NCBI GenBank assembly: GCA_018389105.1
Contig: JACATO010000999.1
Span: 434,001-498,000, forward strand
Direction of reading: 5' to 3'
Origin: Nautilus pompilius
Taxonomy: Eukaryota; Mollusca; Cephalopoda; Nautilida; Nautilidae
Length of the DNA: 64,000 nucleotides
Shown: one piece after another, positions 3,046 through 62,700 of the stretch
How positions within the stretch are numbered: the first letter of the stretch is position 1
Layout of the letters: every line of letters starts with the position of its first letter
The notes under the pieces: generated by a model
What the model was told of the DNA's origin: nothing
Database searches by the model: none
What the model saw: the letters and a program-made list of their open reading frames with translations, nothing else
Made by a program: the position numbers and the translations under genes

Positions 3046-4060
3046 ATGGAGGATCTTGAAGAGCGACGTGTTTGTGTGGAATTCTGTTTCAAATTGGGAA
3101 AAACGTTTACGGAGACTTTTCTAATGTCGCAACAGGCCTATGGGGGGATTGTTTGAGCCGTACGCAATGTCACGAGTGGTACCAGCGTTTCAAATCGGGA
3201 AGGACATCCACCGAAGACGGTCCCAGATCTGGACGACGATCACATCGAGAAAGTGCGCGCTGTGATCCGCGACTGTCCGTGAAGTTTCCGAAGAAGCTGG
3301 CATCTGTAAAAGTTCGTGTCACGTGATTTTAAAAGAAAAGCCGAACATGCATCGTGTAGCCGCAAAATCTGTGGCGCGTCTGCTGACAGATGAACAAAAA
3401 GAGAACCGAGTCAGTCAGTCAGGAGCCCTTTGATCGTTCGAATGCTGATGACAGCTTCCACAGTGTCATAACAGGTGACGAAACGTGGGTGCACGGCCAC
3501 AATATCGAAACAAAAAGGCGGTCGTCGCAGTGGGTTGGATCATCGTCAGAGTCGCTCAAATGTGAAGGTGATGTTGATCGTCTTTTCTGATTGGAAGGGA
3601 GTCGTTCATCACGAGTTTGTTCCCCACGGTCAGACGATCAATAAACAGTTTTACTCGGATGTCCTGAGGCGGAGGAGGCCTGAGGCATGGAAAAACAAAC
3701 CCTGGATGCTGCACCACGACAACGCACCTGCTCACGCGTCACTCCTTATCCGTGATTTTTTCGCAAAGCACGAGACGACTCTCGTCCCCCCGCCGCCCTA
3801 CTCTCCGGATTTGGCCCCTGCGGACTTTTTTTTGGTTCCCAAAGTTGAAATCCACCCTGAATGGTCACCGATTTCAGACGATAGAAGAGATCGAAGAAAA
3901 TTCGCTACGAGAACTGCGCACTATCCCTGAAAACGCGTTGGGAGCGGTGTATCAACAGTAGAGGGAACTGCTTTGAAGGAGACAAGTCTGAGTAAATTGG
4001 AAGTAAAGCAATAAATTTGTTTTTTAAAAAAGTTCGGTTTCTTTTTGGACAGACCTCGTA
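3046..4060 (+). pseudogene. Decayed mariner transposon (DD34D transposase)
   Basis: Relic of a mariner cut-and-paste transposon. The original start is the ATG at 3046 (MEDLEERRVCVEF...) and the original stop is TAA at 4012, giving a span close to the ~345-codon family size. Conserved blocks appear in order: SRTQCHEWYQRFKSGR (helix-turn-helix region), ARLLTDEQKENR, GDETWV (first catalytic Asp codon at 3477), HHDNAPAHASLLI (second Asp, 3718) and YSPDLAPADFF (third Asp, 3823). The second and third Asp codons are in one frame with exactly 34 residues between them, the mariner signature. The reading frame changes at about 3140, 3550, 3850 and near 3955, so no transposase can be made. The right end (about 4030-4058) looks like a terminal inverted repeat followed by TA, the mariner target dinucleotide. 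I find no matching left end, so the copy is probably 5'-eroded. Confidence 0.92.
4028..4060 (+). repeat. Mariner right-end inverted repeat and TA target
   Basis: Immediately after the old transposase stop there is a sequence ending in GGACAGACCTCG and then TA, as expected for a mariner terminus. Its reverse complement is not found upstream of 3046, so only one end is recognisable. Confidence 0.6.
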
Positions 4061-4941: not shown

Positions 4942-7609
4942 TTGACTATGGACGTGTGAATACGTCAGTCTTGTGCGGCGGCGCAATGGAGGGGCACAGA
5001 GATTAGCATCCTGAGCGGTGGAAACTTGTTCGGACCAAATTAAGCTATTGCACATCGTTCCTTTCATCGCAAAAAGTTTGCGGTTGTTTACTTTCCTGGG
5101 TAGGTCACCACCTCGTGGACGGTTTCATTAATCTGAGCTAAAGTCATTTGCAGATATCGCCCCGGAAGAGTGCAAGGTGCCCCCTCCCCCGATCGCTTCA
5201 GGTTTGCCAAACGGAAGTAGCTTTTCACTTCAGAGAAAACGACAGAGGAGGGAGGGCCTTTGATGGTGAGACGAGAGGCCCGGCCGGCCTCGTGACATTC
5301 CAGAGGGACGTGACGACTGTTATTTTTTTGGATAACTATCAACTCGTTTAGCCAGAAGCAGGTAAACAAGCAGAAGTCAGAAAATGTATAAAAAAAGGTA
5401 ACTTATAAAAGCCAGGTGCTGAGGTTGGGCAAAAGATATCACGATTTCTTGATTTCTTGAGGTCGAGCCCCAAATTTCTTAATCTGGACTATTATAATTT
5501 TTTTGGACGGGCGAGGTACATTTTCTAGGTTTGTGTCAGGATCCGACGTTTATACCGAGCTCATCCAAGAAACGGTCAGCTGATTTAAGAGCTGGCGGCT
5601 ATTGTGCAAGAAATCTCCAGTTTAGATCTTAGTTGGCGGATGTTCGATAAATGAGATTATTCACAGCGTGTCATAAGTTGCACTATGTCCATAGGAAGCA
5701 GGCGATCGCATATAACGTCGAAGGTGTTTCTATATAAAGAATATTCTCCACACCATGACGCTGCCCCCCAAACTAAACGACTTTGCTCTTTTTTTTAACC
5801 AGTGCCCAAGGCAACGCTGGTCAGCTGCGAATTCCATCTTTAGATTCGTCACTAAGAGCAATCGCTGTCGCTGGCATCATGCCGACGATGATAAAGAAGC
5901 ATCGTGTTGACAGTTATTTTAACTTTATTTATTTATTTAAAAAAGAACGTGGGTGGTTCTTCATCTTTAAATATGAACTTATACCTAAATATAATTATAT
6001 TCCACATCTTTAAAAAATGAAGAAAAAAAAAACATTGCTATACAAACCAATCAAAGAAAAACTGGATATTACAGGATTCCACGGAATCTTTAGAACTTAA
6101 GCCGGGCAATTTCTCACATGTGACCTTCTATATATAGGTTATAAGTCTTAAGCGTTTTGGAAAAGTCAACAACAAAGCTCGGCATTATTCGTAAAATTGG
6201 TTATTATTTCTGTCATCAACGTAAAAGCGTTCGAGTCGTTCCAAGGTAACCCGCTCGCGACATCAACGGCTCTTTCCGGCCTCGTTTTGAGGTGCGCAGA
6301 TCAGAAACGGGGGATGATAGCTGACAGAACCGAGAATCGTCTCATGCGAGCTCTTCTGAATACTCAGACTAAATGGCTCCTTCCCCACCCAACCCCTTAT
6401 TTTTCTTTTGTTTTTGTACGATAACTAGAATGCTCCAGGGTTTCTGAGCATCTCGAGTAATCCTCAGATGGTACGTGGCGTGGACAGTGTAGGTATTCCA
6501 GCTATTTACGGTCAGAAATACGAAGAATCACAAACTGACCGAAGTATCTGCGCGGCCTGATATAAACGGAACGAAATCACCAACCGGGATTGTAGCTGGA
6601 AGAAATAAATTACCTTAAAAATACCGTTGCCAGATGGCGCTGGTGTAAAATCAGTTTCAGAATCAAGTTCAAGGATCTTTGTTTTCCACACAGAGCCTTG
6701 TGTTAGCGCCGACGATTCTTTGCCGAAACTCAACTAAATGATAGTTCGGTAGTTCAGTCTTCTGACTGCAGCAAACTCTTCCCTGGAAATCCTGAACGTG
6801 TGATAAGTTTTAAGAAAATAAAATAAAACGTTCGTGATAATTATTAATTAATACCGTCTTTCCTTTATCAAATAAACCTTCTCTTCCACCACGGTGATTC
6901 CGGGTATATACACAGCTGCTCTAGGCGCAGCCGTTTGACGCTAATACTTCGATGCTGAGCAACAACAAAAAAAGAGGCTCTCAGCATAAAAAATAGTTCC
7001 TTACTGGTGTTTATTTCAAGTAAATATTTGTGAAATAGTAAATAAACTCTTCGCTCTTAAGCTTGTGTAGAAAATTAAAAACAACAACAACAAACAGATA
7101 TCTGAACAACAAAAAGGGTATTACGTCTGGAGAGCAGTCACGGTGAGTTGGCATGAAAGTCTCTGGGAGTTTTTCCGGAAGATGTTATGCGAACACCGAA
7201 GTCTTAGTAGTGGCTTCATTTAGCCAATATATTTATCACCAGTGTTAACTATGAATAGACGCGGCACAAAATCAATTTGCCTAATTAACTCTCCCCAACC
7301 ATTAGAGAGTAGAATCATCTTTACGTGGCATTTGCGTGACATTACATCCGACAGATTATTAAATGGCACGTGAACGCTTCGTCAGGAAAATGGCTTCGCT
7401 CTATGGCGACAGCCGTTGAAGACGATTTTAAAGGACCAAGACGTGAAGCGTGGACGCTGAGTCCAGTTAACTCTGTTGCGGAAGTTGGCGGCCCAAAAAA
7501 AAGAAACAAGAGTTTTTAGTTATCAGAACAGATGCGAAAATCTGAAATTTCGCTCCAAAGAGGAGAACCAGAAATTCGTTTGGAGTTTCTCCAGCACGAA
7601 TGGCGAGTC

Positions 7610-11160: not shown

Positions 11161-11188
11161 AGTCGATAAGAAGGATCGATGAGAGAGG

Positions 11189-11400
11189 GATGACGTCAGT
11201 ACAGAGATAGATGACGTCAACAAATAGAGATGGCGTCAGTACACATAGATAGATGCCGTCAACACAGAGAGAGATGACGTCAGTATAGAGATAGATGACG
11301 TCAACAAATAGAGATGACGTCAGTACACATAGATAGATGCCGTCAACACAGAGAGAGATGACGTCAGCACAGACAAACAGAGAGAGAGAGAGAGAATCCC
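11189..11400. repeat. TGACGTCA higher-order tandem array (84-bp period)
   Basis: Nine palindrome sites start at 11191, 11212, 11231, 11254, 11275, 11296, 11315, 11338 and 11359. Six are perfect TGACGTCA, one is TGGCGTCA and two are TGCCGTCA. Successive spacings are 21, 19, 23, 21, then 21, 19, 23, 21, so the array is an 84-bp unit built of four ~21-bp subunits and repeated slightly more than twice. Spacers are GATA- and GA-rich, and the array runs into a pure GA tract at about 11378-11395. The reverse-complement flank CTCTGTACTGACGTCATC is shared with the arrays at 30.6 and 59.4 kb. The open frame across it on the minus strand (FVDVIYL, TDVISLCVDG repeats) is a by-product of the 84-bp period, a multiple of three. 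Confidence 0.9.
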
Positions 11401-27600: not shown

Positions 27601-28849
27601 CAACTGGAAAATGGTGCCTGCGTTTCTTTGTTGGATTTGCGCGCATTCACTGGACGCGACACAGTCAGCGACTTTTCAGGAGAGGGCGAATTTAATACAC
27701 CGAAGTTCCTTCGCCAGTGCCAAGCATTTCAAGACCCCTTCACAGCAGCGTGAAAGCAATATCTCTTGGCACGTAGCCTCTTCGCAGTCCTCTGGTAGTT
27801 TACGTATGGATTGTACGCTTCTCCGTATTGTACGCTTTTCCGTATTCGGTCTGTTATGTGAAGAAACTCCATTATCAGCCGTGGCGAGCAAAAGAAAGGT
27901 CCCCAGAACAACCTCTCGATACCCAGTGGGTGACCAGCTCTCCTGCACTTTAGGGCAAACTTGGAATTCACACCCTGTAGATGCCTTCGGACCTGTCAAC
28001 GCACCAGCTCTCCGTGACTGTCGGATGGACCGAAGTACTGCACCAACATGACGGGTGCGGACGAAAATGATTCAACACTGGATGTACTCGATGAAGATAA
28101 GATGAATTTGACAATGAAAAAATATGAAGTCCTGAAATGGGGTAGTCGTTAAATCCAGAAACTCGAATTCTTTGTTCGTCAAAATTACAGATGTCCATTA
28201 ATAACTGCCTGTGTTCGTGCATTTCGTTTTGCATGGCCTTCTGTTCTATTTACCCGGTAAACGTTGAATTGCGGTTTTTATCTTGAAAACTGTCAAATGT
28301 GTAAAGTGATGCTATTACTCACATAATTATATAATAGATTACAGTAATCATTCGCTTCAGAAATCAGGATCTTTGGTGCTGCACGATAAAGAAACACTTG
28401 GACGTTCAAAACCGAAGAAACGTTAATGTTATTCGCTCACTGCGGCAGTTTGATTATCGATTTAGTGGGCGCGGACCTCCGAGTTTGAGATGTGGCGTAA
28501 AGTGAATAATGATTTTATCCGTATCGCATAAGATAGTTGTTATCCAAGAATAAGCTGTCGATCGCATACATCTACTAAAAGCCTCCCATAATAGTGCTTT
28601 TCTTTGAAAGCAAATTGATACCAAAAAGCTAAAAGGTACAGGATATCCTGCATTCATATATGTAAAATATAGATAATAAAATGCAAATAACACATGACAA
28701 AATCGCGTCTCATGTGTAAAAATGAAATACTTCATATTAATTCATGTGTTAGCATAGTACTCTGTCAGTGGTTGTCATGCAAGCAATCAGAAAGGGCCAC
28801 CACGACTGCAGAAGTATACAAGTATAAGCAGTGATATCATTGTAGAATG
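24633..28849. other. No gene recognised; unassigned sequence
   Basis: Open frames of 154 codons (25,728-26,192) and 156 codons (27,581-28,051) occur on the + strand. Neither has a domain or motif I recognise, and several frames of this length are expected by chance in 64 kb. One TCACGTGA E-box palindrome lies at 25,889-25,896. Confidence 0.45.
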
Positions 28850-29690
28850 ATAAATACTACTACGGCTCCTCGAAAGGAAATACCACGTGACAAGCGTTTG
28901 AAAATCAAAGCCTTAGCCAGTGAGGGTACCTCATGCGGTAGACTGCAGCCCAACTTCATATCTCAGAAGGAGTTGTATGCAAGACTCTGAGTATACACGA
29001 AACTCGTACTGCTGACAAGAGACCAGGCAAACAGTCCAAAAGTGATGTTAAATACCTCGGCTCGGGGTGACGAGCCGACCTAGCTAGAGGTAAGGGTGTT
29101 TAAAGTTAGCCGCCCCAAGAAGCGGAACTCAAAGAGGGGGCAGTAGAGATAAAACAGTGAGATTATCAAACCCGAAAGAAGTTGTTCAATAAAAATTAAT
29201 TAAGGTGTGAACTGTTTGGCAATAATCAACAGCGATTTGTTCGAAGGTCGGCCGAGAAGCAATACAACAGGGGTGAAGTATGGGGACAAATCATCAATAC
29301 AAATATAGAGCTGCATATCAACCAGGGGTGTGGGAAATTTGCATAAAATCCCAGGTATACTGACTGCTGACAAATACAAGCGAGTTCCCCCATCAGGAAG
29401 ACGTTTCATTGGTCTGAAGGGGGTCATCTTCCAAAATGACAATGACCCCAAAATCACAGCTAATGTAGTATATGGGCTGATGAAACACTCACAAAGATGC
29501 ATTAACCTGGACAAAGTCCCGATGAGACTATGGGGATACTGAAAAAGGGCCAAACAGCAACCAATCACTTTGGATGAATTGTGGAAAGTGCTACTGGGTA
29601 TTTGAATCTGTAGTCAAACTCTGGTAACCTGGAAACAAGGCTCATTGTCTCTATAAGACAAAGAGCTCACATACCAAACTCTAATGCACA
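28850..29690 (+). pseudogene. Decayed Tc1-like transposon
   Basis: Relic of a Tc1-like DDE transposon on the + strand. N-terminal part at about 28,860-29,040: APRKEIPRDKRLKIKALASEG, the paired helix-turn-helix start, then ETRTADKRPGKQSKSD in a shifted frame. The middle is missing or replaced at about 29,050-29,205. Coding similarity resumes with CELFGNNQQRFVRRSAEKQYN (the SKFELFG and VRRRxGERYN block) from about 29,208. It continues as GVGNLHKIPGILTADKYK in another frame, then GVIFQNDNDPKITANVV at about 29,428-29,478, which holds the second catalytic Asp (consensus FQQDNDPKHT, here with His changed to Ile). QPITLDELWKVL near 29,560 is the C-terminal motif. At least three frame changes and internal stops make it non-functional. 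Terminal inverted repeats were not found. Confidence 0.88.
29058..29077. repeat. GC-rich hairpin inside the Tc1-like relic
   Basis: Arms CGGCTCG (29,058-29,064) and CGAGCCG (29,071-29,077) are perfect complements with a 6-nt loop. It sits exactly where transposase similarity is interrupted, so it may belong to inserted foreign sequence. Confidence 0.5.
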
Positions 29691-30630
29691 GTAAAACGTA
29701 TTCATTCTGTTTTTTTTTTTTTGGTATTTTCTTGTAATAATACATTGTGGATGTATTATATACGTTTATCAGTTGAAATTACTCATTATTTTGCATATCC
29801 TCCATATTTTTCCATAATTATTTCCAAAAATTTTGTATATAAAGAGATACTGACTAATGTTATATCGCTTTATGTTATTATTTTCACTATAGAGAAAGTG
29901 AGTTAGTTTGTGATCTGCTGTTTGGAAAAATATCGCTGAAGAAGGGGACTGAGTCCCACCTCTTTTTAGATTATTGTATCATCTGATAGGTAACCCTAAC
30001 AAACTCGATTATCAAAGATTCAGCACCAGAAATTCTGTTTTGTAACGCGGACAAATTTTTTCTGTCTTTCAAAATGGCGATTTAAATTTGATAACACGTG
30101 ACCAATATGTCAGGTTTCTCGATGTAAAAATACATGCATTCTGAAAAGTCTTTCTCTTTTTAATTCTTAACTGAAAAAAACTGGGGTGAGGAGGGGTTAC
30201 TCGATTAATGCTCCGCCAGTAACGAGGGATTGTTCCGAGCTATTTTATTCAAATAACGTGCACGGCCCGTGATTCATGTGCGTCACGTGATCGCTTCCGA
30301 ATGGCGTCACGGAGGAGGAGGAAGGCGTGACGAGACAAGTAGAAAAAGCCAGTTTTATGGTCTCTTTCATCATCGGCTTGTAGATCGATCCCGATCGTAA
30401 TTGTAGCTACCGCGAGAAGTTCGTCGAATGAAAATTAGGCGACTCTTTTGGGCTGTGTATGTTGAGAACGGGCGTTGAGGGGAGGAGGTTAGACCGGGTT
30501 TTTCACGCGGAGAAATCGATACCGGCCAGCATCGTTCTTATTGAATATTTTTGGAGAGAGGCCCCTCGCTTTAGAAAATTGGAATCAGGTGAAATGTCTG
30601 AAAAGCAGCCAATCAAAGGACTGAAACACG
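29691..30630. other. No gene recognised
   Basis: AT-rich sequence to about 30 kb, then a more GC-rich stretch with a TCACGTGA palindrome at 30,283-30,290. No coding block is recognised. Confidence 0.5.
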
Positions 30631-30631
30631 C

Positions 30632-30728
30632 ACTCTCTCTCTCTCTCTCTGTACTGACGTCATCACTCTCTCTCTCTCTCTACTGACGTCTATCTCTCTC
30701 TCTCTCTCTCTGTACTGACGTCATCTGT
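30632..30728. repeat. CT repeat with embedded TGACGTCA units
   Basis: Three units of CT repeat each ending in TACTGACGTC. Palindromes lie at 30,655-30,662 and 30,716-30,723 (perfect TGACGTCA) and 30,684-30,691 (TGACGTCT). Spacings are 29 and 32 bp. The core CTCTGTACTGACGTCATC equals that of the other two arrays, so this looks like a young or minimal member of the same family. Confidence 0.9.
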
Positions 30729-34265: not shown

Positions 34266-34297
<32 letters not shown>

Positions 34298-34332
34298 TGG
34301 AGATAGATGGAGAGAGAGATGGAGAGAGAGAT

Positions 34333-34365
<33 letters not shown>

Positions 34366-34878
34366 TGAGAGAGAGAGAGATGAGATAGATGAGAGAGAGA
34401 GATGGAGAGAGAGAGAGAGAGATGGAGAGAGAGAGAGGAGAGAGAGAGAGAGAGGAGAGAGAGGGGAGAGGAGGGGGAGAGAGGGGGGAGGAGAGAGAGA
34501 GGAGAGAGGGAGAGAGGTGAGAGAGAGAGGAGAGAGGGAGAGAGGGAGAGAGAGAGAGAGGGGAGAGAGCGAGAGAGGAAGAGAGATGAGAGAGGGAGAG
34601 AAGGGGGAGAGGGAGAGCGGGAGAGAGAGGGGGAGAGAGAGAGAGAGAGATGGGGAGAGAGGGGAGAGCGGGGAGGAGAGAGAGGAGAGAGCGAGGGGAG
34701 AGAGATGAGAGAGAGAGATGGAGAGGGAGAGAGAGAGGAGAGGGAGAGGAGAGAGGGGAGAGAGAGAGGAGGGAGAGAGAGTTGAGAGAGAGAGTGAAGA
34801 GAGAGAGAGAGATGGGGGAGAGAGGAGCAGAGAGATGGAGAGAGGAGAGAGAGAGAGGGTGAGAGAGGGGAAGCCGCG
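34265..34878. repeat. GA-rich polypurine tract
   Basis: About 610 bp that is almost entirely A and G on the + strand, with GAT, GC and GT interruptions. Long open frames in all three forward frames (Arg/Glu/Gly repeats) are produced by the dinucleotide repeat and are not genes. Such tracts favour triplex (H-DNA) structure and replication slippage. Confidence 0.97.
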
Positions 34879-35263: not shown

Positions 35264-35714
35264 TTCCGTTCTGTTCTGTTCTGTTCTGTTTTGTTCCGTT
35301 CCGTTCTGTTCTGTTCTGTTTTGTTCTGTTCCGTTCGTTCTGTTCTGTTCTGTTCTGTTCTGTTTGTTCTGTTCTGTTCTGTTCTGTTTTTGTTCCGTTC
35401 CGTTCTGTTCTGTTCTGTTTTGTTCTGTTCCGTTCCGTTCCGTTCTGTTCTGTTCTGTTTTGTTCCGTTCCGTTCTGTTCTGTTCTGTTTTGTTCTGTTC
35501 CGTTCCGTTCTGTTCTGTTCTGTTTTGTTTCTGTTTTGTTCTGTTCTGTTCTGTTCTGTTTTGTTCCGTTCTGTTCTGTTCTGTTCTGTTCTGTTCTGTT
35601 TTTGTTCCGTTCCGTTCCGTTCTGTTCTGTTCTGTTTTGTTCCGTTCCGTTCTGTTCTGTTCTGTTCTGTTCTGTTTTGTTCCGTTCTGTTTCTGTTCGT
35701 TTTGTTTTTGTTTG
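35264..35714. repeat. TTCTG/TTCCG pentanucleotide satellite
   Basis: About 450 bp of the pentamer TTCTG with scattered TTCCG, TTTTG and TTTTTG variants. The variants recur as blocks (CCGTTCCGTTCTG...), suggesting segmental amplification as well as single-unit slippage. Because five units span 25 nt and three frames read the same pentamers, all six frames stay open (FCSVL on one strand, NRTEQ on the other). The long open frames of up to 263 codons here are artefacts. Confidence 0.97.
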
Positions 35715-53143: not shown

Positions 53144-53210
53144 TATTTAGAATTATAATTTCTAGATTAGCTTTCTTTTCTAACGTTGTCTTTTTAATCG
53201 CTCCATAATT

Positions 53211-53816
53211 ATGTATGCCAGTTTTATGGGGAAAGGAATGATGGACTTAAGGACAAAAGATAAATTCTCTGCGAGTAATGAAAAGACGGAGCGGACGCGA
53301 AAAATCCCGGAATTTTACGATCCAGAAGCCAGGCAGAAGTCCATGACAGACAGCGAGGAGCGGCTTTGCTGGATCTGCTTTGAGTGCGGTACGGACGCCA
53401 CCGCCCATAGATGGACCACACCCTGCCGCTGTAAAGGCTCCATACAGTGGGTCCACAACGGCTGCCTGCTGCAGTGGGTTGACCAGAGGCGGCGGGAGAC
53501 GGAGCCGTCCGAGGCAGTCGAGTGTCAGATCTGCAGGACAAAGTACGTGGTGGTCTACGGCGAATGCAGCCCCCTTTTCCGCTTCGTCCACGCTGTCCGA
53601 AACCTCGCGTACAGATTCCCTTTCAAGTTCACGCTCACCAGTCTCATCGCCTACAACATCATCTTCGGCTTTTTGCGGTCGAGTTTCCACAGGGGAGTGA
53701 TGGCCAGCGTCGCGTCTATGGCCACCAAGGAGCTGCTGGAGGCGTGCTACAGGCGCCAGGTCCACCTGCACCGAAACAGCCGGACCGTGAAGGACTACCA
53801 GGAACCCGCCGCGTGA
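53211..53816 (+). CDS. MARCHF5-like RING-CH E3 ubiquitin ligase, short form
   Basis: Predicted 201-residue protein with a complete RING-CH (RINGv) domain, the E2-binding module of membrane-associated MARCH E3 ligases. Ligands C53, C56, C72, C74, H82, C85, C105 and C108 give the C4HC3 pattern, with family signatures CWICF, PCRCKGS and WVHNGCLLQWVDQ. The C-terminus (about 140-201: a hydrophobic segment, then GVMASVASMATKELLEACYRRQ and the tail VKDYQE) resembles the end of MARCHF5, the mitochondrial outer-membrane ligase. MARCHF5 has about 278 residues and four membrane segments, whereas here at most one weak one (about 140-156) remains. An in-frame TAA at 53,181 makes the frame 5'-complete. ATG 53,211 is chosen as the first start, and M11 (53,241) has a better Kozak context. 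The frame is uninterrupted, intronless and GC-rich at third positions, unlike its AT-rich flanks. It could be a retrogene, a lineage-specific paralogue, or the terminal exon of a longer gene. Confidence 0.8.
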   Translation: MYASFMGKGMMDLRTKDKFSASNEKTERTRKIPEFYDPEARQKSMTDSEERLCWICFECGTDATAHRWTTPCRCKGSIQWVHNGCLLQWVDQRRRETEPSEAVECQICRTKYVVVYGECSPLFRFVHAVRNLAYRFPFKFTLTSLIAYNIIFGFLRSSFHRGVMASVASMATKELLEACYRRQVHLHRNSRTVKDYQEPAA

Positions 53817-56900: not shown

Positions 56901-59340
56901 AACTCCGGCTGTTCCCACCCTGGCGATGTATTACCCGACAACCTCGAGGTGTAGCTATCCCGTGTCAAAGAATGCAGGACCAGAGTTGTTTACCTCGATC
57001 GTCGCTTGTTTTATTTTCCATTCCGATGGTGCGTTTCTCCGGATGTCCCCACCACCACCACCACCCCCGTCCAAGCAGGAATCGCGCCTCGGGCTCGCAC
57101 TAGTGTTGCCGAAGGTTGGGAGTCACAAGAATCTGTCACTGAGTATGCGGTCCAGATATCGCGCTTGTAGTTTAAGGTTACGTTCCCCCATCTCTGCGAG
57201 AACGTTAGTTACACGTGAAAGAGCCGCTAGATGGCGGAAAATTTTGGCATTTTCGATAGTTTATTTTCAATGGAGAAATAAGTACGCACGCCGCCACCCA
57301 ACGTTAGAGAGTGTTATTGACCCCTGCATTCACCTGTAATATTACTTTCAAAATCATTTACCCTGCTGATAGGCTTCTTAAATAATTAGCATGGAAGTTG
57401 ATATCTTGTTTCAGTGATCCTTGTATTATAGATTTTTTAAAAAATTTCTGTCAAGGCGCTTACTTAATAATAGTAATAATAACGGACAAACACGAAAACT
57501 TTCGGCTTATAGGCGCACTAGGGAAAAGACTCAATTATTTTATTTACTTTATCTTATAAGAATCTCGCAACAATTATGTCTGTTGTAGCGCGCTGACGTA
57601 TTTTCGTGATTATCGTTCTTGATTCGGCGCGTTCTCAACAAATGTAGATTTCTTTGCCGACCTGCATCTCGTCGCTGAAGAAGAGAGAGAGGGGGGGGGG
57701 AACCATGTGATGGAGATCTGCCAACCTGTGTCGTGGCCCTCAATGACGGTGTCGATAATGCATGATCAGATTATTATCGATTCGGACTGCCGGCGACTCA
57801 GTGGCTACTGGGCTTTGAGAGCTTGAATCTATTTCCGATCGGACCGGCTTGACCTGCCTTCGCAGCATGGCTTCTTTTCCACTGTGTCGTGCGGGTTCTC
57901 TCCCCTGTCGATGTCGGCAGCTGCGCTCTCGTGGCGCAAACCGCGGCACCACGTTCCCGTGCCAGAGGATCTGTAAAGACTGGAAAACAAACAAACATTT
58001 TAAAAAATATATAATATATTAGGACGGGGATACACACACACACACACAGAGTATATAGTTTGCGGACTTCCTCACAGGTTGCTACGAATAACATGGTAAC
58101 CGAAGGTCGTCTGCATGAATGAGTGGCTGAAAGTCTTCCAATTGTTGCTCGAAAACTGCATCTTATACGATTTATATGACAAAACGCCTACCAATAAATT
58201 TATTCTTTGATCACACAAGACATTTTCATCAAAACATTCTTCATTACATTCCATTGGTGAGTCATAAAATATGGCCGCCTATGCGTGTGTGTGCGCGCGA
58301 GCGTATATACAATCTGATATTATTCTTGAAATTTCTAATTTCCGCTCTCCAGGATATAATCCAAACATTATTGACTGTCATTATGAAAATTTCTCAAACT
58401 CTTACTAGAAAGGGCCAGCCCGGACCTTCGATGAATCGAGAGTATTTTAGTCAATTATCTGTAGCTACGATGATTAAATGTTTCAACTTAGTAACACAGG
58501 CAAGTTTATTAAATATTCAAAAGGTCTTCAGCGAGCTGAAAATTAAAGTGCTTTCAGAATATTAAATCATTTACAACAACAACAAAATAAAACATAAATG
58601 GCTTTATGAATAATTAAAAAAAAATTTTTTTTTTCCTGTTTAATTTTTTTACCGGACGCATTGACAAGGAAGGGGAGAGAGCCTCGAGGTGATTAAAACA
58701 ACAACAACAACAACAACAAACACCCGAAATGAGAAGCAAGCAATTTGATTGGCCGACTACTCAAGCAAAACAAGATTGGTGATGGGCCGCCTGACGATAA
58801 TTATTATCTGCTAAGATCTTATAAACTGAACAGTATTTGAAGCCCATAGTTTTTCACGCCATTCACCCTGAGAAGCAGAGTTTGCTGTTGTTCATCCTCA
58901 GAGAAGGGGGGCGTCGTCTGCTTTGCTTAGAAGTCTAACTACGCGTTTATAAGGTAGACTGTCAAATGCTTAGACCCAAGCCAATCAAAGTCGCCTTGAT
59001 CAACGTAATATTAAGTCCAACTGCAATCGATAAATAGACACGCAGGGTTAAGAGAAAGATGTTCGTTAAATAAACTATCACTTTTATTAACATAATTTAC
59101 ATGCATTTCTAATAATAATAATAATTTGGAAAATATAATTACTTTTGTTAACACTTGTTTCAGATAATTTCTCAGCATGCTCAAGTTTGCGTCAAATTTT
59201 ACATTAAAGAAAATGAGGACATTTCTACTTGTAAGAAAAGACATCGGCTCAGTTGCATTCATTACTCTATCTAAGCTGACAATTCAAGTTATTTCCATAC
59301 AGTCCACGAAACTAGCAAAGTTCGTCATTTTTCCGCCCTT
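53908..59340. other. No gene recognised; unassigned sequence
   Basis: Mostly AT-rich with short TA (about 54,690), CA (58,030-58,047) and ACA (58,699-58,722) repeats. Open frames up to 137 codons lack known domains. No further exon of the MARCHF5-like gene was recognised downstream. Confidence 0.45.
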
Positions 59341-59342
59341 CG

Positions 59343-59374
<32 letters not shown>

Positions 59375-59703
59375 GTACTGACGTCATATATCTCTTCTCC
59401 TGTTTCTGCTGACGTCATCTCTGTCTATACTGACATCATCCGCCTCTCTCTCTGTACTGACGTCATATATCTCTTTTCCTATTCTGCTGACGTCATCTCT
59501 GTCTATACTGACATCATCCGCCTCTCTCTCTCTGTACTGACGTCATATATCTCTTTTCCTGTTTCTGCTGACGTCATCTCTGTCTATACTGACATCATCC
59601 GTCTCTCTCTCTCTGTGCTGACGTCATATATCTCTTCTCCTGTTTCTGCTGACGTCATCTCTGTCTATACTGACATCATCCGTCTCTCTCTGTCTCTCTC
59701 TCT
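59341..59703. repeat. TGACGTCA tandem array in CT repeat (80-bp period)
   Basis: Four units of 79-81 bp, each with three palindrome sites separated by CT-rich spacers. Sites start at 59,379, 59,410, 59,431; 59,458, 59,488, 59,509; 59,538, 59,569, 59,590; 59,619, 59,650, 59,671. The first two of every triplet are perfect TGACGTCA (eight copies) and the third is always TGACATCA (four copies). Spacings within units are 30-31 and 21 bp, and between units 27-29 bp. Spacers are also conserved: ATATCTCTT between sites 1 and 2, TCTCTGTCTATAC between 2 and 3. Plain CT tracts flank both ends. The core CTGTACTGACGTCAT links it to the arrays at 11.2 and 30.7 kb. The 257-codon open frame across it is a by-product. 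Confidence 0.93.
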
Positions 59704-62700
59704 TTCTGTCGTTTTCTATATAAAGGCTCTGAAGCTTTTATTTGAGGTTTTCAAATGTAACCACAAAAGCCATCTATTCGAGGACAATGAGAGGTCACCA
59801 GATGTTCGCCAACCTCTTCAGGCAAGCTTGACCGAAGTCCACTTACTGAACCTGGAATTGCTTCTACCCAGGGCGGGAGTTGGGGCTACAAATAATTTCA
59901 AATTTTTGCTGCGTAATACAACAGTTAAGGAGGGTCGAAATTTAAAATAAAAATACCGCCGTTGTGAGTTCGATGAAAATAAATTGTGTCAATTCTTTTC
60001 CTTCCTGTGTGTGCCATGATAATAGAAGAGAGAATGCGGGCGGCACTCTCGTTATTTGCGACAATGAGTCATGCTGACACCGACGTATAGAGCTACGCGG
60101 ACGCTAAGCAGGATCCTTTACAACCAGTTTAAGGACACTGAAGCAAATATCACGACCTAACGTCAGCTGCTTACATTAAGCCCACAAATAAGGATCTCGA
60201 ACAAACAACACGTGACCCGGCACCTGTCTCTATCTCTTTCTTTATAATGACTATTCTTGAACAACATCAGACAAGAAAGAGCCCATGAAAGCAATTTTTT
60301 AAAAAAGATTGTTTGCTGCATTTGATTATCGATTTGTTTTCATTTCCGGTTTCAACTAAGACTGAATAGAGTTTAGAGAAATTAAAAAAAAAGAAAGTAT
60401 GTTTGATAAATTTAAATTTATTAAAGTTGTAAATGCACCGACCAGACTGACAACACAAATCAGATTTTTAAAAATACGAAATAACGCTAACCTTCCACGC
60501 TTTAAGCTACCAGAACCACGCGGAGCAAGTAATAACATCTCGTCCCGCACAAAATATATACTTCACGTTGATTGGATGACCACGAACTCGGGGGGGGGGG
60601 AAGAAGAAACTGCCGCAGCACTGTTTTGTTTGTCTGATGAACTTCCAGCATTTTTGGATTTTAACTCTTCGGGATATTAGCATGGAAAACAACGTCGCCT
60701 GTTTAGATATTGATTTCTCCCGCGTCATAAATGGGGATGATCGAGTAGAAATTAGCCCGAAATTCAAAAGTCTGCCTGAGCGGACTCGTTACACCGACTG
60801 ACAGGTGCTAAGTCAGAAGAGCGACCTTGTATTGAAATGCTACACCATACTCGGTGGCGTTCGGGTGGAATAACTCCGTTGTGTCTTTAAAGAGTTAACT
60901 GAACGACCAGTAATAACTACTCAACGGTTGGTTATATATATTTTAATACAATGTTTCGGTCTTATGCAATGCGAAATAAATTGAACAACAACAAAGAATA
61001 TTATTACTGAATTTTTATTCAAATTTCGTTTTCGAGATCTGGGGGTTTCCGTTTATGCCCAGGGTTCATCCCACGAGGGAGACAATTATAGAGCCCTATT
61101 TATGCTGTTAGTGACATGAGACAATATTAAATATAGAAGATAGTAAGTTTGTGCAACCATTAAATGAAGATTAGCCTGTTGATTCTTTAAAGATGAAGCA
61201 AAGCTGACGTTTCCACCAGTGTGAACTCGTATTTACGGGCACCAGCTCTCGGAGAAGAGTCGAGTTATTCACCCGTGTAGTCTGTTAGGATGTTGCTTGA
61301 TATGAAAGAGTCTTCTGTGTACATAGTTTTTCCCCCGGTAATGTGAATGGCTGTAGAGAGTTTAAGTGACAAGACCTGGGGGGCATAGAGGGATGGATAG
61401 GGGGAAAAGGAACAAACCAGGACGACCTGGTATCATTAATTTGAGCGACCATTAAATCGTATGTGGCCTGCTAGTGCGGCTTATTTCACAAGAACGGGAT
61501 TCGTATAGAGCTCGGCGTAGACCGGAAGTGAAGACGAGTCGCACCTCGTTCCTTGGCTGCTGTTGACGTACGGATCCAGCAGGATGTTTCGATGGAGGAA
61601 AGATTGCCCACTCCATCCTAATTGCTGTCCACTACCAACGGCCAAAATAAAGGTTAGGCTGGTGAGCATTCTGCTGAGGGAGAAGTAGATAGTCCTGCGG
61701 TGTTTGGCAAACAAAGCAATCATGATTTCTGAAATAGCAAATCTGGTGAAGTAGGCGATATTAAATGCGAGCTGTTCCGCTTCTAGGTGTCGGCGCCAGA
61801 ACATAAGAGAAAAATGATGCCACCCGCTTGTGGAAGTAGTAATTCTGATTTTAACAATAGAGTCAAAGCCAGGCAGTGTATGCAACAATTTACAGTGAGA
61901 TTTAAAATTATCATCTGTTAATCTATTGATATGAGAAATGATAACAAACCTTTGTTCGAGAATTTGAATGACCTACGTCTTCCACTAACAGAATTATATT
62001 TATTTTTTAAATTGAAATCCGAGAAGGAAGATCAGATTTTTGAAATGTAAATAACCCATCAAGCGGCAGGTGAGGGCCGAATTATTCCCGTGCGGATGAA
62101 AACGTCTAATCGGATTAAACGAGAGAAAAAATCGCGTCTGACGTTTGACGAGCTCCATTTCCTTGTTTCACGTGACTTTTTATAGGTGAAACGAAGGCCT
62201 GGTTTTATTGGGATCCTTCCAGCGACTTTGGCTGATGGGTGAGTTTACTTACATCTCTGGGAAACCTGTATCGTCATCCCGTGATTCGTAAAACTTTATC
62301 GAACATTTTGAAGAAAAGACTGTGGGCAATAAACTTGATAAAACCAGCATAATGCGCTAAACAGCGAGTTTGGAAGGGTTTCTTAAGCATCTGGAACAAT
62401 CTGAGTAATGATTTAATTTTGATAGTGCATATAATAACCACAGGACGGAAAATGGGGCTGATGATATTTACTGTGCGCGGGGTGAAGCTACAATGTTCGT
62501 GGGGGAATGAGAAGGGAGACAGAGAGATTTGGCTTAAAATAAATTTAGAAATTAAATCAGACGAATGCATTTAAACTTAATTAAACCTGGGATATCCCAC
62601 AGAGATCAAAGTTTCTTTGATCTTTATCATACCACCACAAAGTTCAATGTATGACAGAAGCGCGAACCTGACGGAACCCTGACTCTTTTTTCACAGGAGT

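What the first reader, a model, noticed from the sequence alone, without database searches (positions are those of the whole stretch)
59341..59703. Tandem array of 12 ATF/CREB palindromes with conserved triplet architecture
Seen directly: four ~80-bp units, each TGACGTCA - 30/31 bp - TGACGTCA - 21 bp - TGACATCA. The third site carries the same G-to-A (CpG-to-TpG type, seen as CA) change in all four units, so it predates the amplification. Spacings of 31 and 21 bp are close to three and two helical turns, which would put the sites of a triplet on one DNA face. A CT microsatellite that has captured a bZIP-binding palindrome and amplified it could act as an enhancer, a transcription-factor sink or a recombination hotspot. 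I do not know of a described repeat of this design. Function is inference.
Basis: partly seen in the sequence, partly recalled or inferred. Interest (0 to 1): 0.72.

Follow-up and report, generated by a model that had tools for sequence, protein, structure and literature searches.

The report
Dispersed CT repeat carrying CREB-type sites
The array of CREB/ATF-type DNA sites is real, but it is one of probably thousands of similar arrays in which a short motif sits inside CT repeats across this animal's genome, and the CREB site looks more like a passenger of a spreading repeat than a built enhancer.

Summary
The array is real: four units of 79-81 bp, eight TGACGTCA and four TGACATCA, within CT repeats. 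It is not a one-off. The window holds two more arrays on the same core (11182-11373, minus strand; 30633-30724). The 728-Mb genome holds 17,620 exact GTACTGACGTCATC, against 20 for the reversed control. In the arrays read, GTAC-cores on the CT strand point one way, 250 to 0. Twenty-two arrays share no flanking DNA beyond repeat text. No copy of the 81-bp unit closer than 85% was found elsewhere (40 of 860 candidates scored), but a 26-bp module of it recurs at an unrelated locus. The palindrome is not kept better than the GTAC beside it. One palindrome-breaking variant is commoner genome-wide than one palindrome-sparing variant (1,356 against 744). Two stretches read show expansion with no TGACGTCA at all. 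Spacings are not in helical phase.

Best reading: a dispersed minisatellite family living in CT microsatellites, spreading by copying between CT tracts and re-amplified locus by locus, with the CRE mostly a passenger. Enhancer or sink function is untested.

The parts
59343..59705 (+). CT-rich array of the finding; higher-order repeat of 4 units of about 81 bp (TRF core 59362-59695)
59379..59657 (+). eight intact TGACGTCA sites (starts 59379, 59410, 59458, 59488, 59538, 59569, 59619, 59650)
59431..59678 (+). four degenerate third sites TGACATCA (starts 59431, 59509, 59590, 59671)
11182..11373 (-). sister array, 9 sites spaced 19-23 bp (6 TGACGTCA, 1 TGGCGTCA, 2 TGCCGTCA as read on the + strand), 84-bp higher-order repeat of 2.3 copies
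30633..30724 (+). sister array, 3 units in a CT tract (GTAC-TGACGTCA, CTAC-TGACGTCT, GTAC-TGACGTCA)
59717..59724 (+). TATAWAAR match just downstream of the array; may be chance

Best explanation
The array is one member of a dispersed minisatellite family whose unit is a 12-14-bp core, GTAC-TGACGTCA-T(C/A), set in one orientation inside CT microsatellite tracts. Shown: genome-wide abundance of the 14-mer; in the arrays read, CT context and fixed orientation; in 22 arrays, unrelated flanks; local higher-order repeats in the larger arrays; a 26-bp module shared by two unrelated loci. Inferred: the motif moves from CT tract to CT tract by DNA-level copying, with CT repeats on both sides giving the homology (ectopic conversion, template switching in repair, or reinsertion of repeat circles). 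Each tract is then re-amplified by slippage and unequal exchange, which made the 4 x 81 bp block here. The CREB/ATF palindrome came along with the core. It can probably be bound by bZIP proteins (inference from the consensus), but expansion of an array does not depend on it.
For: 17,620 copies of GTACTGACGTCATC against 20 for the reversed pattern. GTAC-cores on the CT strand: 250 forward, 0 reverse, over 37 site clusters read (two clusters have no such core: a non-CT pair in L017 and the L041 array, which has CTCC in front). 22 arrays, 44 flanks of 600 bp: five short matches (30-85 bp), all in leftover motif/CT text at the trimmed edges. Only one of the 22 has any other repeat shared within the sample and within 400 bp: L025, whose first site lies about 70 bp past the end of a repeated element. 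The 81-bp unit: 100% and 94% here, at most 85% elsewhere among 40 scored of 860 candidates. C259 (L041) has the module TGACGTCATCTCTGTCTATACTGACA in other flanks and another order. Arrays on one contig share rare words more than arrays on two: C1/C2 only, 19 arrays, 0.39-0.54 against 0.19-0.34 over five settings; permutation p 0.007-0.032, size-blocked p 0.013-0.108. No TGACGTCA in L042 (45 GTAC-cores in 1,751 bp) or L043 (12 in 651 bp). Positions of GTAC kept at 86-97%, of the palindrome at 85-97%, 243 sites.
Against: No empty site, allele or related species could be read, so direction and mechanism of copying are inferred. The flank search that might have shown a copy without the array did not complete. 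Between paralogous units the whole palindrome changed less often than other repeated spacer 8-mers (32 of 274 against 505 of 1,996; bootstrap 95% of the difference -0.21 to -0.05). That could be constraint, although CT slippage also inflates spacer differences. The neighbour effect is modest, rests on two contigs, and its distance trend on C1 reached p < 0.05 in one of five settings. The loci were chosen for holding the motif, so they do not sample the genome at random.
Confidence: 0.62

Rival explanations
1. The arrays are selected regulatory platforms: clustered CREB/ATF sites acting as enhancers, promoters or a transcription-factor sink.
For: Perfect consensus CRE in 8 of 12 sites here; 93,914 TGACGTCA genome-wide against 19,528 for its reverse; whole palindromes changed in 32 of 274 comparisons, other repeated spacer 8-mers in 505 of 1,996; a TATAWAAR lies just downstream of this array, and 2 of 22 arrays have one within 100 bp downstream, against 2.1% of random windows (binomial about 0.08 by my arithmetic).
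Against: GTAC is kept as well as the palindrome; G2-to-A, which breaks the CRE, has 1,356 copies and A(-2)-to-G, which spares it, 744 (one position each); stretches with no TGACGTCA expanded; no in-phase spacing; 0 of 22 arrays have a TATAWAAR within 100 bp upstream.
Confidence: 0.15
2. The arrays are internal tandem repeats of a transposon (for example a Helitron-like or other non-autonomous element).
For: Dispersed over the genome; some transposons carry internal tandem repeats (recalled).
Against: No shared flanks among 22 arrays over 600 bp each side; the one repeated element found within 400 bp of an array ends before it, and four other copies of that element show no array in the 160 bp printed after their ends; no target-site duplication seen by eye in the 50 bp printed for each flank.
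Confidence: 0.1
3. Convergence: mutational bias around CT repeats made the same motif many times.
For: Convergent flank patterns are reported for human (AC)n microsatellites (PMC509290, abstract read).
Against: A specific 14-mer at 17,620 copies against 20 for its reverse, one orientation (250 to 0), and a 26-bp module shared by unrelated loci call for copying.
Confidence: 0.04
4. The motif is a meiotic or repair hotspot signal (like the fission-yeast M26/CRE heptamer ATGACGT), and breakage at it drives array instability and spread.
For: The heptamer ATGACGT is present at all 16 intact sites of the three window arrays, read on the GA strand; the M26 link is recalled, from no call.
Against: Stretches in which the heptamer is destroyed still expanded (L042); many array sites elsewhere have TGACGTCAC and so lack it (L014); no recombination data.
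Confidence: 0.07

Closest known systems
Euchromatic dispersed satellites of Drosophila (1.688 / Rsp-like)
   Same: Tandem arrays scattered at many euchromatic loci; spread by circles or conversion has been suggested (passages of PMC7642928 and PMC7919458 read).
   Different: Those are longer-unit satellites not embedded in a dinucleotide tract (recalled); here a 12-14-bp core lives inside a CT microsatellite. A passage of PMC7642928 says that repeats on the same chromosome did not cluster more often (the sentence goes on with 'although', not seen); here same-contig sharing is somewhat raised.
Compound or interrupted (CT)n microsatellites
   Same: CT-tract body, 2-bp length steps.
   Different: The interruption is one and the same 12-14-bp core in very many tracts and itself forms higher-order repeats.
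GGAA microsatellites used as neo-enhancers by EWS-FLI1
   Same: Would be the functional model if bZIP proteins use these arrays (titles and starts of abstracts seen in a search listing).
   Different: No binding or expression evidence here; the site is a core within the CT repeat, not the repeat unit itself.
Drosophila GA-rich MSL recognition elements
   Same: GA/CT-rich motif dispersed over a genome (recalled).
   Different: No transposon carrier found here in 22 arrays; no link to a sex chromosome tested.

Membership tests
ATF/CREB site (CRE) | consensus palindrome TGACGTCA (consensus recalled) | tested here: met
   8 of 12 sites in this array; 157 of 243 relaxed sites in the sample
ATF/CREB site (CRE) | bound by CREB/ATF bZIP proteins in vivo | not testable with these tools
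   no chromatin or binding data held
ATF/CREB site (CRE) | palindrome conserved beyond its neighbours (sign of use, not part of the definition) | tested here: inconclusive
   Against: per base 42/2192 in the palindrome, 19/676 in GTAC, bootstrap interval spans 0; G2>A 1,356 and A-2>G 744. For: 32/274 palindromes changed, 505/1996 spacer 8-mers
Minisatellite / satellite | head-to-tail copies of a unit over 6 bp | tested here: met
   TRF period 81, 4.2 copies
Dispersed satellite family | many unlinked loci of one family | tested here: met
   17,620 exact 14-mers; first 100 places lie on 5 contigs, related arrays listed on many more
Dispersed satellite family | unrelated flanks at different loci | tested here: met
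   44 flanks of 22 arrays
Transposable element | common body or ends around the repeat | tested here: not met
   (22 arrays only)
Transposable element | target-site duplication | tested here: inconclusive
   looked at by eye in the 50 bp per flank printed, none seen; CT edges make it hard to score
Helically phased site array | spacings at multiples of about 10.5 bp | tested here: not met
   167 spacings, resultant 0.195, phase -3.0 bp; 111 odd, 56 even

The most novel reading that the evidence does not exclude
A 12-14-bp motif that behaves as a parasite of microsatellites. It has no ends, no gene and no carrier. It uses the CT tracts on both sides as homology to copy itself from one CT tract to the next, more often nearby, at roughly 6,000 places (extrapolated: the first 100 matches fall by eye into 35 clusters), and so strews tens of thousands of potential CREB/ATF sites over a genome.
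Probability: 0.35. Interest if true: 0.7.

Novelty: new variant of a known kind. Interest (0 to 1): 0.5.

Why it matters
If the copying reading holds, a motif of 12-14 bp can colonise a genome with nothing but a common microsatellite as its vehicle. That would be a simple way for transcription-factor sites to be scattered genome-wide without transposons. It can be tested directly with alleles and related species. It also warns that a dense array of perfect CREB sites is not by itself evidence of an enhancer.

Tried and rejected
Locus-specific enhancer design: rejected as the main reading once two sister arrays and the genome-wide count appeared. Helical phasing: rejected. Transposon carrier: rejected for the sample; the list was capped at its longest rows, so relisted every non-simple repeat near an array. 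Coding repeat: the frame 59168-59950 is open, but units of 79, 80, 81 and 81 bp do not hold a frame; not pursued. Known RNA: no Rfam match at gathering score in the window. Viral contigs: CTCTGTACTGACGTCAT, 0 matches. Literature: no paper held the string GTACTGACGTCA. Other full-text searches showed no description of such a repeat in the titles and abstract starts listed: 1 paper; 10; 1; 10 listed of 97; 4; 8 listed of 486. The unlisted papers were not seen, and the library holds open-licence papers only. A first locality test (39 of 95 same-contig pairs, 71 of 370 different-contig pairs, none of 2,000 permutations reaching the difference) mixed arrays cut at unequal lengths, so it was redone on C1 and C2 only. 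The single-strand DNA folding signal (z -6.0) pairs the palindromes with each other and was not taken further.

Full report
What is there. The finding is accurate in its main facts. Between 59343 and 59705 a CT-rich stretch holds four units, cut here as 79, 80, 81 and 81 bp; TRF gives period 81, 4.2 copies and 94% matches. Each unit carries TGACGTCA, TGACGTCA and TGACATCA; the twelve site starts are. The 31 and 21 bp in the finding are start-to-start distances. The four units differ by substitutions in five columns, none of them in the 24 site columns; with 57 other columns this is too few to show constraint. The window has 25 TGACGTCA against 0.78 expected, none of 100 shuffles reaching that.

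It is not alone in the window. Two further arrays use the same core: 11182-11373 on the minus strand (9 sites, spacings 19-23 bp) and 30633-30724 on the plus strand. All three read (CT)n-GTAC-TGACGTCA-T-(CT)n on their CT strand, with variants. Of 10 CT tracts that a simple census found in the window, 3 have the site within 150 bp.

It is a genome-wide family. The window lies at C954:434001-498000 of a 727.6-Mb assembly. GTACTGACGTCATC occurs 9,011 + 8,609 = 17,620 times, against 7 + 13 = 20 for the reversed pattern. TGACGTCA occurs 93,914 times against 19,528 for its reverse; another palindrome, TCACGTGA, gives 16,076 against 10,068. The first 100 places listed fall by eye into 35 clusters, so roughly 6,000 places genome-wide (extrapolation; density is uneven: the window has 25 TGACGTCA in 64 kb and the first 160 kb of C1 has 100, against a genome mean of about 8 per 64 kb). 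I read 20 loci of about 10 kb chosen because they hold the motif on C1 and C2, eight small ones on C5-C7, one on C259 and three chosen for the degenerate variant. Over 37 site clusters in these and the window, GTAC-cores on the CT strand number 250 forward and 0 reverse; two clusters have none, a chance-like pair outside CT in L017 and the L041 array, whose sites have CTCC in front. Of 170 CT-context TGACGTCA, 110 have GTAC in front and 19 CTCC. The larger arrays show local higher-order repeats of their own.

It is not carried by a transposon, in the sample. Flanks of 600 bp on both sides of 22 arrays gave five short matches of 30-85 bp, all in motif/CT text left at the trimmed edges. A complete list of non-simple repeats within 400 bp of these arrays shows one element beside one array: the first site of the L025 array lies about 70 bp past the end of an element that has copies in L009, L018, L021 and the window (28658-29831), and these show no array in the 160 bp printed after their ends.

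Copying between loci. The 161-bp query from this array matched its own locus at 100% and 94%; the best elsewhere is at most 85% over part of it, from 40 scored of 860 candidates. C259 shares the 26-bp module TGACGTCATCTCTGTCTATACTGACA with the window array in different flanks and a different order. Another triplet-type array (one degenerate and two intact sites, 7 and 13 sites in all) is on C23 (L044), so the triplet design is one of several. Arrays on the same contig share rare words more than arrays on different contigs: C1/C2-only test, 19 arrays, permutation p 0.007-0.032 over five settings, size-blocked p 0.013-0.108; the distance trend on C1 is negative in all five settings and below 0.05 in one. 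This is a modest local bias.

Is the palindrome what matters? (a) In 243 relaxed sites the GTAC positions are kept at 86-97% and the palindrome positions at 85-97%; the worst kept palindrome position is the CpG G. (b) Between paralogous units of 18 arrays the palindrome differed at 42 of 2,192 bases and GTAC at 19 of 676; the bootstrap interval of the difference spans zero. In the same call whole palindromes changed in 32 of 274 comparisons and other repeated spacer 8-mers in 505 of 1,996, which speaks for some constraint or for slippage in the spacers (an earlier count that did not condition both classes alike gave 25 of 1,013 palindrome bases and 33 of 497 bases in front of it). (c) Genome-wide, G2-to-A inside the palindrome has 1,356 copies and A(-2)-to-G outside it 744; the CpG transitions have 2,750 and 2,033. 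One position on each side is a thin comparison, but it goes against constraint. (d) The 1,751 bp of L042 hold 45 GTAC-cores, of which 24 are TGACATCA and 14 TGACACCA, and no TGACGTCA; the 651 bp of L043, part of an array, hold none either. Arrays can grow without a CRE.

Spacing. Over 167 adjacent intact sites less than 70 bp apart, frequent spacings are 17, 19, 21, 25, 27 and 37-41 bp. Odd values outnumber even ones 111 to 56. The preferred phase for a 10.5-bp turn is -3.0 bp with resultant 0.195 (nominal p 0.002, but paralogous spacings are not independent). The spacings follow 2-bp CT steps, not whole helical turns.

Surroundings. A TATAWAAR match starts at 59717, just after the array. Over 22 arrays, 2 have one within 100 bp downstream and 0 upstream, against 2.1% of random windows, which does not establish a promoter class. 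Of ten open frames given to Pfam, one near this side is a RING-variant frame at 53184-53813 (MARCH-type by recall) and one is a transposase fragment; eight had no match. Lone TGACGTCA outside arrays is also frequent: 22 non-CT singles in 261 kb, 9 of them in the window, 1 of 22 with GTAC beside it. These look like a separate population, perhaps ordinary regulatory CREs (inference).

Verdict. A confirmed observation with an unusual scale: a CT-microsatellite-borne minisatellite family, probably at thousands of loci, whose core contains a perfect CRE. Most likely it spreads by DNA copying between CT tracts and is re-amplified locally. Function of any array remains open. The literature searches showed no description of this repeat in what they listed, within an open-licence library only.

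Noticed in passing
L009, L010 and many contigs of G000: 117 COX1 matches (96 scored of 180 candidates), most of them with TGA inside: the assembly is rich in mitochondrial insertions. One piece reads open with code 5.
   Followed up: partly
window, 9 lone sites (2184, 4934, 21187, 32878, 35170, 39818, 41471, 45612, 53136): TGACGTCA outside the arrays is the most over-represented palindromic 8-mer in the window (9 against 0.62 by an order-2 model); none of these nine has GTAC beside it in the contexts printed.
   Followed up: partly
window, 15 matches at 13 places listed: E-box CACGTGAC is over-represented in the window, but TCACGTGA is only 1.6 times its control genome-wide.
   Followed up: partly
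L017, L019 (arrays near base 5000): Degenerate cores TGACATCATC run on into (ATC)n stretches, a second microsatellite apparently born from the motif.
   Followed up: no
window 3472-3927: Mariner-type transposase fragment (Transposase_1, DDE_3); the region has an 85% identical copy in L019.
   Followed up: no
window 28658-29831; L025:3357-4669: Copies, about 70% identical, of a repeated element also in L009, L018 and L021; Tc1/mariner type is a guess from recall.
   Followed up: no
window 35264-35706 and 34266-34867: A 443-bp (TTCTG)n array and a 602-bp AG tract without the motif.
   Followed up: no
window, whole: CpG observed/expected is 1.04, yet the two CpG transitions of the array motif outnumber the two non-CpG transitions counted (against 112, 121); arrays may be methylated in the germ line although the surroundings are not.
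   Followed up: no
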